Below the pieces are notes generated by a model. That model did no database searches. It was not told where the DNA came from and saw only the letters and a program-made list of their open reading frames with translations. Shown piece after piece: positions 4,549 through 49,196 of a stretch of DNA of 64,000 nucleotides. The translations under genes and the position numbers were made by a program. Each line of letters begins with the position of its first letter. The stretch's first letter is position 1. Origin of the DNA: Lysobacterales bacterium 66-474. Its GTDB lineage: Bacteria > Pseudomonadota > Gammaproteobacteria > Xanthomonadales > Rhodanobacteraceae. Location: contig MKWP01000001.1 of assembly GCA_001899805.1 (NCBI GenBank), positions 129,001 to 193,000 on the forward strand, written 5' to 3'.

Positions 4549-4666
4549 CCTTCTCCCTTCGGGAGAAGGTGGCCCGAAGGGCCGGATGAGGGTTCGGTTC
4601 CACGACAAGCCACTCCGCGCGAGACTCGTACCCTCACCCCTGCCCCTCTCCCGGCGGGAGAGGGGC
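4549..4666. repeat. Bipartite palindromic repeat, copy 1
   Basis: Two hairpins face each other. The left one is CCTTCTCCC-ttc-GGGAGAAGG at 4549-4569 and the right one has 11-bp perfect arms, GCCCCTCTCCC and GGGAGAGGGGC, at 4642-4666. Inside, GATGAGGGTTCGG on the left is mirrored by CGTACCCTCACCCC on the right. The same arrangement recurs at 39811-39974 and 46880-47017, with a half copy at 7301-7347. It lies inside an operon, between the adaptor and ATPase genes, where it could modulate mRNA processing or termination. Confidence 0.8.
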
Positions 4667-4670
4667 TCAA

Positions 4671-44230: not shown

Positions 44231-45565
44231 ATGACCGCTTCGCCGCAAGACAATCTTTCCGCGCTGTACCCCGCGCACCTCGCCGAGATCGCAAGACGCA
44301 GCGCCGACGCGCTCGCCGCTTGCGGTCGCGACGCACTGGTGATCGCCGCCGGCCAATCGCGTGACTGGTTCCTCGACGACCAGGGCTACCCGTTCAGGCC
44401 CAATCCGCATTTCCTGCACTGGCTGCCGCTGACCGACGCGCCGGGCAGCTGGGTCGTTTACACGCCGGGCGCGAAACCGAAATTGATTTTCCTGCAGCCC
44501 CACGATTACTGGCACGTCGTCCCGGCTGCACCCTCCGGTTACTGGGTCGGGCATTTCGACATCGTGACGATCCGCACGCCCGAAGAGGCCCGCGCGCATC
44601 TTCCAGGAGATGCGTCGCGCTGTGCGATCGTGGGCGAGGCCAATGCGGCCGTCGGCGATTTCGCGCCCGACAATCCTCCCGCCGCATTGAACCTTTTGCA
44701 CTACCGGCGCGCATTCAAGACGCCCTACGAAATCACCATGATGCGGGTCGCCAGCAAGCTCGGCGTGCACGGCCATCGTGCGGCCGAAAAAGCGTTCCGC
44801 GCCGGATTGTCGGAATTCGATATCCATTGCGAATACCTGGAAGCCACGCGCCTGGCCGAACACCAGTTGCCCTACGGCAACATCATCGCGCTCGACGCAC
44901 ACGCCGCCGTGCTGCACTACATGCACTTCGACCGCAATCCGCCCGCGCACGCGCATTCGTTCCTGATCGACGCCGGCGGCCAGTTCCACGGCTACGCCTC
45001 CGACATCACGCGCACGTACGCCTCACCCGACACCGGCGAGTTCCAGGCGTTGATCGACGCGGTGGACAAGGCGCAACAGGGTTTCTGCGCGAAGGTGCGC
45101 GCCGGACAAAGCTATCCCGAACTGCACGTCCATGCGCACCACGTATTGATGCACGCGATGCGCGAGCAGGGCTTCATCACGTGCTCGCCGGAAGCGGCAG
45201 TCGCGAACGGCATCTCCCCGGCGTTCTTCCCGCACGGGCTCGGGCATCTGATCGGCCTGCAGGTGCACGACGTCGCCGGCTTCGCGCGCGACGAAACCGG
45301 CGCAACCATTCCGAAGCCGGATGGCCATCCGTATTTGCGTCTCACGCGTACCCTGCAACCGGGCATGGTCACCACCATAGAACCGGGCCTGTATTTCATC
45401 GACATGCTGCTGGCGGAGCTGAAATCCAGGCCGGCCGCGAAAGACGTCGTGTGGAACAAAGTGGATGCTTTCCGCAAGTACGGCGGCATCCGCATCGAAG
45501 ACGACGTGGTATGCACCGAGGGCGATCCGGTCAACCTCACGCGCGAGGCGTTTGCGGCGGCGTAG
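44231..45565 (+). CDS. pepQ: Xaa-Pro dipeptidase PepQ
   Basis: The 444-residue metallopeptidase of the M24 pita-bread family cleaves Xaa-Pro dipeptides. Metal ligands are visible: Asp pair in LIDAGGQFHGYASDITRTY, His in FFPHGLGHLIG, Glu in TIEPGLYF and Glu in GGIRIEDDVV. The length equals that of E. coli PepQ (443). The start is ATG 44231. The last 178 bp are duplicated downstream at 46675-46852, beyond a lipoprotein gene. Confidence 0.95.
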   Translation: MTASPQDNLSALYPAHLAEIARRSADALAACGRDALVIAAGQSRDWFLDDQGYPFRPNPHFLHWLPLTDAPGSWVVYTPGAKPKLIFLQPHDYWHVVPAAPSGYWVGHFDIVTIRTPEEARAHLPGDASRCAIVGEANAAVGDFAPDNPPAALNLLHYRRAFKTPYEITMMRVASKLGVHGHRAAEKAFRAGLSEFDIHCEYLEATRLAEHQLPYGNIIALDAHAAVLHYMHFDRNPPAHAHSFLIDAGGQFHGYASDITRTYASPDTGEFQALIDAVDKAQQGFCAKVRAGQSYPELHVHAHHVLMHAMREQGFITCSPEAAVANGISPAFFPHGLGHLIGLQVHDVAGFARDETGATIPKPDGHPYLRLTRTLQPGMVTTIEPGLYFIDMLLAELKSRPAAKDVVWNKVDAFRKYGGIRIEDDVVCTEGDPVNLTREAFAAA

Positions 45566-45664
45566 CTTCACCTGTCGCGCAATGCACTCCGTCTCGCTAC
45601 CATGCCGCCGGGGACCCACCGGTGGACAACCATGCCCGAGGCGTACTTTCCACATTCCGCCCAC

Positions 45665-46669
45665 ATGAACACCCAGGCATTCGCGAGGTTCATCACCGTA
45701 GCAGCGCTGTTGGTCGCCATCGTTGGCTGTTCGAGTCCGCAATCCCCGCTACAACCGAAAACCGCCCCCGAGCTTGAACAAGCCGCCATTCACTGCATGA
45801 GTGAACGGAATTGGGAATGCGCGGAGAGCGATTGGTCGCAGTACATCAAGCTGCGCCCGAATGACGGCCGGGCGATTGCGAATTATGGTTTCGCCCTTCA
45901 TTTCGACGGCAATGACCAGGCTGCGATTCGCCAATTCGAAACAGCGATCAGCCAGGGCGAAGGCACTTACGACCTGTTCGCCGCCTATGCGGACAGCCTT
46001 GCCAATATCGGCCGTACCAAGGCTGCGATCGACTGGTCATACAAGGCGCTGCAACTGGTCCCGTCACTCGTGGATGTGCGGGGCAACCTGGCAAAACTGC
46101 TGGTGCACCAGAAAAAGTACTACGAAGCGCTGGCGTTGCTCGCTGAGTTCGACCAGCATCTCGAAGCGGAGGGGCATCCTCCATATTTCAAGGGACAGCG
46201 CATCGCCATCGAATCCACAGCACCTCGCCGCCTGCCCGCGAATGACGACCAACAATCCGATCCGCTGCGGATGGTTGAATTCAACGGTCATTTCTTCGCG
46301 CCCGTGCGCATTGGCGAGTCTCCGGTTGCTGCGTTTGTCGTCGATACCGGGGCGTCGACCGTCACGCTCGATGACGATTTCCTCGTTGCCTCCAAGGCGA
46401 AGTACACGATCGCCCGCGTCCACGCCCCGGTGAAGATCGCCGACGGAAGCGTCGTCGATGCAAAACTGGTTGCCATTGATCACATGGAAATCGGTAATTA
46501 CGAACTGGATGACGTTCCGGCAGTAGTGTGTGGAACCTGCGCGCTTCTGCTTGGTGAAAACGTACTTTCCCATTTCGACATGTCTGCCACCAAAGTCCAG
46601 GGCGTGAACGCTCTGACTTTGCACCCACATACGGGCATCCCCGACGCAACGTCGGTGCGAGGACGCTGA
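45665..46669 (+). CDS. TPR and retropepsin-like aspartic protease lipoprotein
   Basis: The 334-residue predicted lipoprotein has lipobox AIVGC with Cys 22. TPR-like helices span about residues 35-170 (NWECAESDWSQYIKLRPNDG, DWSYKALQLVPS). A retropepsin-like domain follows from about 205, with the active-site motif VDTGAST at 226-232 and a later LLGENVLSHF segment matching the LLGxxFL strand of bacterial aspartic proteases. The mature protein would sit in the envelope. Its base composition is visibly less GC-rich than the neighbours. It lies between pepQ and a duplicated pepQ 3' end, suggesting a recent insertion. Substrate is unknown. Confidence 0.75.
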   Translation: MNTQAFARFITVAALLVAIVGCSSPQSPLQPKTAPELEQAAIHCMSERNWECAESDWSQYIKLRPNDGRAIANYGFALHFDGNDQAAIRQFETAISQGEGTYDLFAAYADSLANIGRTKAAIDWSYKALQLVPSLVDVRGNLAKLLVHQKKYYEALALLAEFDQHLEAEGHPPYFKGQRIAIESTAPRRLPANDDQQSDPLRMVEFNGHFFAPVRIGESPVAAFVVDTGASTVTLDDDFLVASKAKYTIARVHAPVKIADGSVVDAKLVAIDHMEIGNYELDDVPAVVCGTCALLLGENVLSHFDMSATKVQGVNALTLHPHTGIPDATSVRGR

Positions 46670-46674
46670 CCAGA

Positions 46675-46852
46675 CCTGTATTTCATCGACATGCTGCTGG
46701 CGGAGCTGAAATCCAGGCCGGCCGCGAAAGACGTCGTGTGGAACAAAGTGGACGCCTTCCGCAAATACGGCGGCATCCGCATCGAAGACGACGTGGTATG
46801 CACCGAGGGCGATCCGCTGAACCTCACGCGCGAGGCGTTTGCAGCGGCATGA
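46675..46852 (+). pseudogene. Duplicated 3' end of pepQ
   Basis: The 178 bp align without gaps to 45388-45565, the last 59 codons of pepQ (including stop). Only about ten bases differ, mostly at third codon positions, plus a Val-to-Leu change. It has no start codon and is probably not expressed alone. With the true pepQ end it brackets the lipoprotein gene as a direct repeat. Confidence 0.9.
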
Positions 46853-46879
46853 TTTCCCATCTCCCCTCGACAATTGAAC

Positions 46880-47017
46880 CCCTCTCCCACCGGGAGAGGG
46901 TGGCGCGAAGCGCCGGGTGAGGGTTCGGGCCCCGCGCGGTTGTCAATGTCTACGCGAGACCGCAACGTCGATGGGCCCCGTACCCTCACCCCTGCCCCTC
47001 TCCCGGTGGGAGAGGGG
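46880..47017. repeat. Bipartite palindromic repeat, copy 4
   Basis: Left hairpin CCCTCTCCC-acc-GGGAGAGGG and right hairpin CCCCTCTCCC-ggt-GGGAGAGGGG flank a mirrored GGGTGAGGGTTCGG and CGTACCCTCACCCC. It lies between the convergent 3' ends of the duplicated pepQ fragment and the cyclase-like gene, and could act as a bidirectional terminator. Confidence 0.85.
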
Positions 47018-47021
47018 TTCT

Positions 47022-49196
47022 CTACTTCATCGCCACCGCATCGGTGGTGGTCGGCAAGCCGACCTTCCGGCAGAACGCGGCGAAGCGCGGGTCGTGCTGG
47101 TAACGCAGGATCAACGGGTCGGACAGGGCCAGGAAGACTCCGCCGTCGCGGTTGCTCCAGGCGCGGTCCAGCCACTGGAACATGGCATCGGGATCCTTGC
47201 GCAGCGCATGCACCTCGGCGACCTGGTACGCCGCATCGCCGGCGTACTGCTTGATCAAGTCGTCCAGGGCAGCGTCCGCACCCGTGCGGTCGGGGCCGAC
47301 CTGCAGCGCCAGCGTCATCGCGATGCCATGCCAGATGCCCGGCGGCTCCTTCTGCGCCGCGGCCAATGCACCGGCCGCATCGCCACGCAGGATTTCGATG
47401 ACCGCCAGTTGCTCGTAATTGGCGACGCCGTCGGGGCGCAACGAGATGGCGGTCTGGATGGCCGCGCGTGCCTCGTCCAGATGACCGGCCGCGGCAAGGT
47501 AGTAGCTCAGCCATTCGTACCAGCGCGAGTGGCGCGGATCGACCAGCAACGCCTGCCTGGCCAGCGTGGCGGCACGCTCCACCTGCCCCAGTGCGGGCGA
47601 AATGTAGGCGAGGCCGAATTGCGCTTTGGCATCGTTGGGCGACAGCAACAACGCGCGCTGCGCCTCGGCCTCGGCGCCACGCCAGTTCATGTCCACGAGC
47701 TGCAACAGGTTGGCGTGCGCCTGATGCGCCAACGACAGGTTGGGATCCAGCGCCAGCGCGGATTCGACCGCCGTGCGTGCGTGGCTGAACGCCTGCGCCG
47801 CCGGCGCGCCACCCTGGAATTGCACCGCGAGGTTGACGGTCGTGCTGGACAACTGCGCGTACGCCGCCGCGTATTTCGGATCGAGGCTGATCGCTTCGTT
47901 GTAGGCGTCGATCGCCTGGCGGAAGCCTTGCTCGGTGCCGACGGCGTCGTAGGCGACGCCGTGCTGGTACGCGGCGTACGCCGCGAGATTCCCGCTCGGC
48001 GGTCGCTCGCTTTGCAGCACCGCGCCGGGCGCCGTCAGCAGTTCGACCTGCAAAGCGGTGGCGGCCGCGCTGGTGATTTCATCCTGCAGCGCGAACAGGT
48101 CCTTGTACGGCCGATCGTAGCGCTGCGACCACAGGATGCTCCCGTCGGGTGCGTTCACCAGGGTCGCCGTGATGCGCACCGCTCCGCCATCGCGCTGCAC
48201 CGAGCCTTCCAGCAGATGCACCACGCCCAGGGCCTTGCCGATCTGCGCCGCGGTGTCCTTGCTGTTGCGGAACTGGAACGCCGAATTGCGGCTGATGACC
48301 TTGAGGCCGGCGAACTGCGACAAGGCGTTGATGAGGTTTTCGCTCAACCCGTCCGAAAAGAACTGCTGGCCAGGGTCGCCGCTGTCGTTCGAGAACGGCA
48401 GCACCGCGACGGACTTTTCCGGTATCGCGGGCGCCATCGGGCCGTTGCGCCAGAACCACACGCCCACCAGCGCGCCCAGCAATACGGTGGCGACGAGCGC
48501 CGCCACGAATCTTCGACGCACGCGACCAACGGGGGCGCCAGCGCGTGCACTCCCCGGCGCACGCAACGGCGCCGTGCCGGATATGCCCACTTCGAACACG
48601 TCCACCGCTTCCGGCAAGCCCTTCAACCGGTAGCGACCGTGCTGCAACCAGCGCAGCCCGCCGCCTTGCGTGTCGATTTCATCTTCGGCGCGCTGCGCCA
48701 GCGACGCCGCGGACTCGCTCAGCAGGGTTTGTCCCGGCAAGGCGAGTTGCGCCAGCCGCGCCGCAATGGGCTTGGTCAGACCTTCCACCTCGACCGGCTT
48801 GGCGCCATGCGCCACTGCTTCCGGAGGGTTTTCCCAGGTCACCACGTCGCCCATGTGGATGCCGACCCGCGCACGGACGTCCTCGCCGGCGGATTCGGAC
48901 AGGCGCGCGAGCGCGGCGTGGTAATCCAGCGCCCAGGCCACGGCGTGGCTGGGACGTTCGAACATCAACAGGAAGCCGTCGGTCTTGTCGATTTCGCGAC
49001 CGTGATGGCGTGTCGTCAGGCCGCGGGCGAGTTGGTCGTGACGTGCGATGAGATCGGAAGCACGCTGGTCGCCCAGGCGTTCCACCAGCGCGGTGGAGTC
49101 GGCGAGATCGCACACCAGCAGCGTGCAAATCCGGCGCGAATGCACGGTCGCAGGCGGCGAGGTGGTTGCCGGTACCGGTGGTTGCAGATGTTCCAT
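47022..49196 (-). CDS. Class III cyclase-like domain, TolB-like domain and TPR protein
   Basis: The product has 724 residues. A cyclase homology domain (CHD) at about 20-205 keeps the first metal Asp (VCDLADST, D30) and a KTDG motif (D73). The usual VNxAARL is PIAARL, so the transition-state Asn seems lost and cyclase activity is doubtful. One transmembrane helix lies at about 230-249. A TolB/FlgO-like segment (KSVAVLPFSNDSGDPGQQFFSDGLSE) and TPR repeats to the C-terminus follow. Such proteins are common in Xanthomonadales as sensors or scaffolds. It is divergent from the APC permease gene, with 189 bp between. Confidence 0.85.
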   Translation of the reverse strand: MEHLQPPVPATTSPPATVHSRRICTLLVCDLADSTALVERLGDQRASDLIARHDQLARGLTTRHHGREIDKTDGFLLMFERPSHAVAWALDYHAALARLSESAGEDVRARVGIHMGDVVTWENPPEAVAHGAKPVEVEGLTKPIAARLAQLALPGQTLLSESAASLAQRAEDEIDTQGGGLRWLQHGRYRLKGLPEAVDVFEVGISGTAPLRAPGSARAGAPVGRVRRRFVAALVATVLLGALVGVWFWRNGPMAPAIPEKSVAVLPFSNDSGDPGQQFFSDGLSENLINALSQFAGLKVISRNSAFQFRNSKDTAAQIGKALGVVHLLEGSVQRDGGAVRITATLVNAPDGSILWSQRYDRPYKDLFALQDEITSAAATALQVELLTAPGAVLQSERPPSGNLAAYAAYQHGVAYDAVGTEQGFRQAIDAYNEAISLDPKYAAAYAQLSSTTVNLAVQFQGGAPAAQAFSHARTAVESALALDPNLSLAHQAHANLLQLVDMNWRGAEAEAQRALLLSPNDAKAQFGLAYISPALGQVERAATLARQALLVDPRHSRWYEWLSYYLAAAGHLDEARAAIQTAISLRPDGVANYEQLAVIEILRGDAAGALAAAQKEPPGIWHGIAMTLALQVGPDRTGADAALDDLIKQYAGDAAYQVAEVHALRKDPDAMFQWLDRAWSNRDGGVFLALSDPLILRYQHDPRFAAFCRKVGLPTTTDAVAMK

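What the first reader, a model, noticed from the sequence alone, without database searches (positions are those of the whole stretch)
44231..46852. Accessory islet inserted at the 3' end of pepQ, bounded by a 178-bp direct repeat
The last 178 bp of pepQ (45388-45565) reappear without gaps at 46675-46852 with about ten substitutions, mostly silent. Between them is one gene with lower GC than its surroundings. This looks like entry of a foreign segment that regenerated the end of pepQ, as integrative elements do at gene ends, or recombination with DNA from a relative carrying a different pepQ allele. No integrase is visible, so the mechanism may be homologous recombination or an element that has lost its integrase.
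Basis: partly seen in the sequence, partly recalled or inferred. Interest (0 to 1): 0.72.

Follow-up and report, generated by a model that had tools for sequence, protein, structure and literature searches.

The report
Foreign gene beside duplicated pepQ end
A bacterium appears to have picked up one extra gene together with a relative's version of the end of its neighbour pepQ, and its own old end of pepQ was left as a leftover copy on the far side; this is a clean natural example of a known kind of DNA capture rather than a new kind of element.

Summary
The last 178 bp of pepQ (45388-45565) recur at 46675-46852 with 9 substitutions, around one low-GC gene encoding a TPR plus retropepsin-like aspartic protease. 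All 9 differences lie in the last 100 bp; the first 78 bp are identical, although that half is the more variable one in the genus. Only one residue differs. So the two ends diverged as working pepQ alleles in different genomes, while the left halves look like one genome's DNA present twice. Best reading: one-sided, homology-anchored capture. A relative's fragment (end of pepQ plus downstream gene) crossed over inside pepQ near 45466 and its other end joined illegitimately at 46674/46675, leaving the resident pepQ end as a relic. No tyrosine-integrase match lies on this 351-kb contig. None of 15 other genus genomes carries this gene; four carry other small cargo at the site, and one of these (G009) has its own older, decayed second pepQ end. 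That indicates an insertion hotspot, not a simple duplication. The outcome resembles e14 in icd, the mechanism homology-facilitated illegitimate recombination; both are known kinds. The mechanism is inferred; a circular single crossover with gene conversion, or a degenerate e14-like element, is not excluded.

The parts
44231..45565 (+). pepQ (Xaa-Pro dipeptidase, 444 aa), intact; its last ~100 bp are inferred to come from a donor
   Evidence: NF010133 at 589 bits; PepQ_N and Peptidase_M24; ORF
45388..45465 (+). left part of proximal repeat, identical in both copies (resident DNA, inferred)
   Evidence: 0 of 78 differences
45466..45565 (+). right part of proximal repeat, donor pepQ end (inferred)
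   Evidence: 9 of 100 differences to the distal copy, one amino-acid change
45566..46674 (+). low-GC inserted segment, donor DNA downstream of its pepQ (inferred)
   Evidence: its gene is absent from 15 other genus genomes; site contents
45665..46669 (+). cargo gene: lipoprotein-like N-terminus (own reading), TPR repeats, DTGA retropepsin-like aspartic protease (334 aa)
   Evidence: PF13975 and PF13650 above cut-off, TPR families; TIGR02281 below cut-off; DTGA motif shared with 4 homologues
46675..46852 (+). distal repeat: displaced resident pepQ end (inferred). Its frame is closed upstream by the cargo stop; an in-frame ATG at 46691 could at most give a 53-residue fragment
46859..47021 (.). 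dispersed inverted-repeat element (25-bp arms) between relic and next gene; not part of the islet
   Evidence: 68 matching pieces in the own genome, strands counted apart, itself included; arms
47022..49196 (-). resident convergent neighbour: cyclase-like domain plus TPR protein
   Evidence: Guanylate_cyc just below cut-off; an 81% identical homologue lies beyond pepQ in G007

Best explanation
A DNA fragment from a close relative, carrying the end of that relative's pepQ and the gene downstream of it, entered the cell. One end recombined by homology with the resident pepQ close to 45466, so pepQ now ends in the donor's last ~100 bp and is followed by the donor's downstream gene. That duplicates 78 bp of resident pepQ and leaves the resident's old end as a relic beside the old downstream neighbour. 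Shown: the repeat, the mosaic of identity and divergence, the silent character of the changes, the low GC, absence of the gene elsewhere in the sampled genus, and variable cargo at the same site. Inferred: which copy is resident, the route of entry (natural transformation is plausible) and the one-sided mechanism.
For: Differences are 0 of 78 on the left and 9 of 100 on the right (Fisher P 0.005). Between genus members the left part is the more variable one (mean 21.9% vs 16.2% over 91 pairs), and the lowest left divergence of any pair is 11.5%. Thinning real genus pairs to 9 differences gives none in the left 78 in 0.10% of draws. Amino acids: 1 change where random substitution gives about 6 (simulated P 0.0004), so the right parts diverged as working genes. 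The distal copy is contiguous with the resident downstream neighbour, whose homologue also lies beyond pepQ in G007 (81% identity, with a different islet between) and, at 60-64% identity, in G006, G012, G002 and G003. Cargo is absent from 15 of 15 other genus genomes and present in 5 of 233 family genomes, own included. A ComEC homologue is present (weak, 10 of 14 controls also match).
Against: No donor genome with pepQ followed by this gene was found. The right 100 bp does not assign either copy to a lineage. The right junction has only patchy similarity (ACCnGnCCTG), not a clear 3-10 bp microhomology. Published one-sided events usually delete recipient DNA, and in one E. coli conjugation study the partial duplications were ascribed to circular single crossovers (PMC3240628, passages). 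A difference-free run of 78 anywhere in the repeat is not rare (7.7% of draws); only its place at the left end is. In 16 of 91 genus pairs the left part is not more diverged than the right. The left/right boundary was chosen after seeing the data.
Confidence: 0.5

Rival explanations
1. A donor fragment closed into a circle (or lay on a plasmid) and integrated by one ordinary crossover in the pepQ end, giving a direct repeat; the left part was later made identical by gene conversion.
For: In E. coli conjugation, 56 of 60 Lac- clones gave the PCR product of a partial duplication, and 14 that were sequenced had 109-950 bp duplicated; the authors read them as single crossover of a circular molecule lacking part of the homologous segment (PMC3240628, passages). 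It explains repeat and insert without loss of resident DNA.
Against: Without conversion the left part should differ at least as much as the right; about 9.5 differences are expected and 0 are seen. No plasmid or phage record matched this pepQ end.
Confidence: 0.22
2. A decayed e14-like integrative element: it carried its own pepQ end, integrated at a core in the gene and has lost its integrase.
For: Same outcome as e14 in icd: 165-bp duplication, 12 nucleotide changes, two conservative residue changes (PMC11148124, passages). Recurrent use of the pepQ 3' site by other cargo.
Against: No tyrosine integrase in the islet or on its contig. The other cargo are toxin-antitoxin-like or single genes. 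The identical stretch is 78 bp where donor-versus-resident divergence is expected. Only 2 of the 226 family genomes with a match have a second pepQ end.
Confidence: 0.15
3. Old tandem duplication of the pepQ end, with an unrelated later insertion and drift.
For: Simple; needs no donor allele.
Against: Changes are almost all silent although one copy is only a gene fragment, and all lie in one part. In G009, whose second end is clearly old, 12 residues differ over 29 nucleotide changes, which is what drift looks like.
Confidence: 0.05
4. Assembly chimera of two strains.
For: Two alleles of one gene end side by side; no reads were available.
Against: The joint would need overlap between the cargo end and mid-pepQ, and only patchy similarity is seen there; the genome has 16 contigs and 0.17% estimated contamination; an analogous structure exists in G009.
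Confidence: 0.05

Closest known systems
Prophage e14 / icd (icdC) of E. coli K-12
   Same: A host gene has a new, mostly silently different 3' end and the other end lies as a direct repeat on the far side of the insert (PMC11148124, passages)
   Different: e14 is a prophage with a putative integrase; here there are 1.1 kb, one non-phage gene and no integrase, and the left part of the repeat is identical
Homology-facilitated illegitimate recombination (HFIR) in naturally competent bacteria
   Same: One homologous anchor and one illegitimate joint; inserts of about 1 kb on average (PMC3240628, passages)
   Different: Products generally carry a deletion and mostly a 3-10 bp microhomology; here there is a short duplication and no clear microhomology
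Sequential displacement of T6SS effector-immunity modules in Vibrio cholerae
   Same: A module enters at a conserved upstream anchor and the ancestral 3' part is shifted downstream and kept; an HFIR-like mechanism is proposed there (PMC5361080, passages)
   Different: There the displaced part is a kept immunity gene; here it is a gene fragment without evident function
Small variable segments of bacterial genomes
   Same: Short accessory segments between conserved stretches, ascribed largely to illegitimate recombination (PMC2884548, passages)
   Different: That work compares strains within three species; here the comparison is between species of a genus

Membership tests
Product of homology-facilitated illegitimate recombination | homologous crossover at one end | tested here: inconclusive
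   switch from identity to 9% divergence inside pepQ at 45465/45466 fits it, but no donor sequence is known
Product of homology-facilitated illegitimate recombination | illegitimate joint at the other end | tested here: met
   abrupt non-homologous joint at 46674/46675; also expected of a circularised donor
Product of homology-facilitated illegitimate recombination | 3-10 bp microhomology at the joint (usual, not obligatory) | tested here: inconclusive
   patchy ACCnGnCCTG only; donor sequence unknown; 3 of 4 E. coli conjugation clones also had none
Product of homology-facilitated illegitimate recombination | deletion of recipient DNA (usual) | tested here: not met
   78 bp are duplicated, nothing visibly lost; so not filed as a standard product, only as working like it
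e14-like integrative element | integrase gene | tested here: not met
   the islet holds one gene, with TPR and protease domains; 0 of 12 PF00589 matches of this genome on contig C1
e14-like integrative element | gene end present twice around the insert, with mostly silent differences | tested here: met
e14-like integrative element | excision to an empty site | not testable with these tools
   needs DNA of the strain
Accessory-gene insertion hotspot | different cargo or none at the same core-gene junction in relatives | tested here: met
   15 genus genomes with a readable site: 5 with islets of different content (own included), 10 without one I could name, of which G002 and G011 have a short membrane-protein-like ORF there
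Retropepsin-like aspartic protease (clan AA) | family profile and D-T-G-A catalytic motif | tested here: met
   PF13975 47 bits vs cut-off 28.2; DTGA; TIGR02281 below its cut-off; activity untested

The most novel reading that the evidence does not exclude
The 3' end of pepQ in this uncultured Rhodanobacteraceae genus is repeatedly used, without any integrase, as a landing place where a donor's gene end plus downstream cargo (proteases, toxin-antitoxin modules) is grafted on and the old end is pushed out as a relic that then decays. Displaced ends of different ages (G000 fresh, G009 decayed) would be a fossil record of integrase-free gene capture at core-gene ends.
Probability: 0.3. Interest if true: 0.55.

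Novelty: new member of a known kind. Interest (0 to 1): 0.35.

Why it matters
How single genes without integrases enter chromosomes is usually guessed from presence and absence. Here a likely crossover point, the illegitimate joint and the displaced gene end can be read in the sequence. If general, displaced gene ends could be used to count and date integrase-free gene capture.

Tried and rejected
Assigning each pepQ end to a lineage by similarity to 13 usable genus members failed: 100 bp is too short (G002 was misaligned there by a 5-codon extension and was left out of the pair counts; G015 has no readable end).

The donor was sought and not found. Cargo relatives exist in 4 other family genomes (51-58% identity), at other loci: the 13-14 kb fetched around each holds no pepQ and no repeat of 60 bp or more that flanks the gene. 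The same five genomes and no others matched among 398 order genomes sampled (E 1e-15). Five plasmid records matched at 42-45% identity, in Variovorax and Eleftheria, and no phage record. The pepQ end has no match in phage or plasmid records.

Generality: a self-comparison of 100 loci (1.05 Mb, several overlapping the same genomes) gave G009 as the only pepQ-end case (it appears twice, as L021 and L100; the other pairs, in L029, L036, L067, L068, L114 and L150, are not pepQ ends). In 452 kb of the own genome (12%), window included, the pepQ repeat was the only pair above 84% identity; the other pairs, 66-2799 bp at 65-83%, were taken for paralogues or repeats and not examined. Faint pepQ remnants behind the islets of G004, G014 and G007 were sought and none exceeded the shuffled controls; nor did any other genus member apart from G000 and G009. 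Codon usage does not mark the gene as foreign.

Literature: searches. The search for pepQ with 'genomic island' and 'insertion' found 14 papers, of which 10 were listed; no listed title is evidently about this site (listing only). I claim no more than that. Papers were seen as passages or as outline and abstract.

Full report
pepQ runs 44231-45565 (PepQ, NF010133). Its last 178 bp (45388-45565) recur ungapped at 46675-46852 with nine substitutions, and no other direct repeat of 50 bp or more lies within 8 kb in the window. Between them lies one gene, 45665-46669, encoding a 334-aa protein with a lipoprotein-like N-terminus (my reading of the sequence), TPR repeats and a retropepsin-like aspartic protease domain with a DTGA motif. 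No solved structure matched the protease part by sequence at E 0.01; the eight hits are to the TPR part.

The substitutions are not spread evenly. The first 78 bp are identical and the last 100 bp hold all nine. Among 14 genus members, own included, compared as 91 pairs (G002 left out for alignment, G015 unreadable), the left part is on average the more variable one, at 21.9% against 16.2%; in 16 of the 91 pairs it is not. When real pairs are thinned to nine differences, none falls in the left 78 in 0.1% of draws. A difference-free run of that length anywhere, including the conserved middle, occurs in 7.7%. The boundary was seen before it was tested. Of the nine, only one codon (two substitutions) changes an amino acid, whereas random change would give about six (P 0.0004). 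The right parts therefore diverged as working pepQ ends in two genomes and were brought together later. The left parts look like one genome's sequence present twice.

This pattern fits a one-sided event best: a homologous crossover at about 45466, donor DNA to 46674, then an illegitimate joint into resident pepQ at 46675. A circle integrating by a single crossover, or an e14-like element carrying its own gene end, should leave donor against resident sequence over the whole repeat, unless conversion later evened out the left part. On this reading the resident's old end, with a TGA stop, is now the distal copy. Its frame is closed upstream by the stop of the cargo gene; an in-frame ATG at 46691 could at most start a 53-residue fragment. 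It lies beside the resident convergent neighbour (47022-49196), whose homologue also lies beyond pepQ in G007 (81% identical, behind another islet) and, at 60-64% identity, in four more genomes.

The site is variable in the genus. Of 16 genomes, 15 have a readable pepQ end (G015 is truncated). Five carry small islets next to it: this one; G009 with a PIN protein and a small upstream ORF that looks like its antitoxin (unnamed by NCBIfam); G014 with another PIN protein (27% identical to that of G009, E 0.07) and a small AbrB-like ORF (my reading); G007 with MntA-HepT; and G004 with a metallo-beta-lactamase-fold protein. In four (G006, G012, G003, G002) a cyclase-TPR homologue follows, in G002 after a short ORF and in G003 cut by the contig end. 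In five (G001, G005, G013, G010, G008) the amino-acid permease follows within about 0.3-0.8 kb; here it starts 3.8 kb after pepQ. G011 has other genes. Upstream of pepQ the PilZ gene stays adjacent in the 14 of these 15 where the contig reaches it. No PF00589 match lies downstream of pepQ near the site in any of the 15. The nearest on a pepQ contig are about 8 kb (G014) and 12 kb (G013) upstream.

G009 is a second case with other cargo: 135 bp of pepQ end lie behind its PIN islet at 79-81% identity to pepQ ends, with 12 residue changes over 29 nucleotide changes against its own pepQ. Working ends of the same region differ by 6.4 residues on average and at most 10 over 91 pairs. It looks like an older displaced end that has decayed. 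In the whole family, 226 of 233 genomes match the 60-residue end at E 1e-6, and only G000 and G009 match twice.

The cargo gene is rare: 5 of 233 family genomes including this one, the same 5 of 398 order genomes sampled. Its relatives sit at other loci without such repeats. GC is low but codon usage ordinary. The donor is probably an unsampled member of the same genus (inference: the right parts are 91% identical to each other, against at most 90% and 89% to any of 13 usable sampled members).

In print, the outcome resembles e14 in icd (165-bp duplication, 12 changes; PMC11148124, passages), and the mechanism resembles homology-facilitated illegitimate recombination (PMC3240628, passages) and the displacement model for T6SS immunity genes (PMC5361080, passages). 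Two points count against a standard HFIR product: a duplication instead of a deletion, and no clear microhomology. PMC3240628 ascribes the partial duplications in its own system to circular single crossovers. I therefore give the one-sided reading 0.5 and the circle 0.22. The finding is a well-preserved member of a known kind.

Noticed in passing
window 46859-47021: Dispersed inverted-repeat element with 25-bp perfect arms; 68 matching pieces in the own genome, strands counted apart and itself included, one of them elsewhere in the window near 4549-4668.
   Followed up: partly
L028 4564-5408: MntA-HepT type VII toxin-antitoxin module between pepQ and the cyclase-TPR gene in G007, at the same junction.
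   Followed up: partly
L068 6161-7174: A cargo homologue in G152 sits between genes that look like ahcY and metF (named from recall of the sequences), another conserved-gene junction.
   Followed up: no
G014:C1:2362142-2362663 and G013:C33:27658-28179: Tyrosine recombinase matches about 8 and 12 kb upstream of pepQ in two genus members; possibly a separate island upstream.
   Followed up: no
window 47022-49196: Cyclase-like domain (just below Pfam cut-off) joined to TPR repeats, with a 60-81% homologue beyond pepQ in five relatives and none found there in others.
   Followed up: no
L067 5942-7153: The search that brought in G090's cargo homologue counted one in-frame TAA in the matched stretch.
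   Followed up: no
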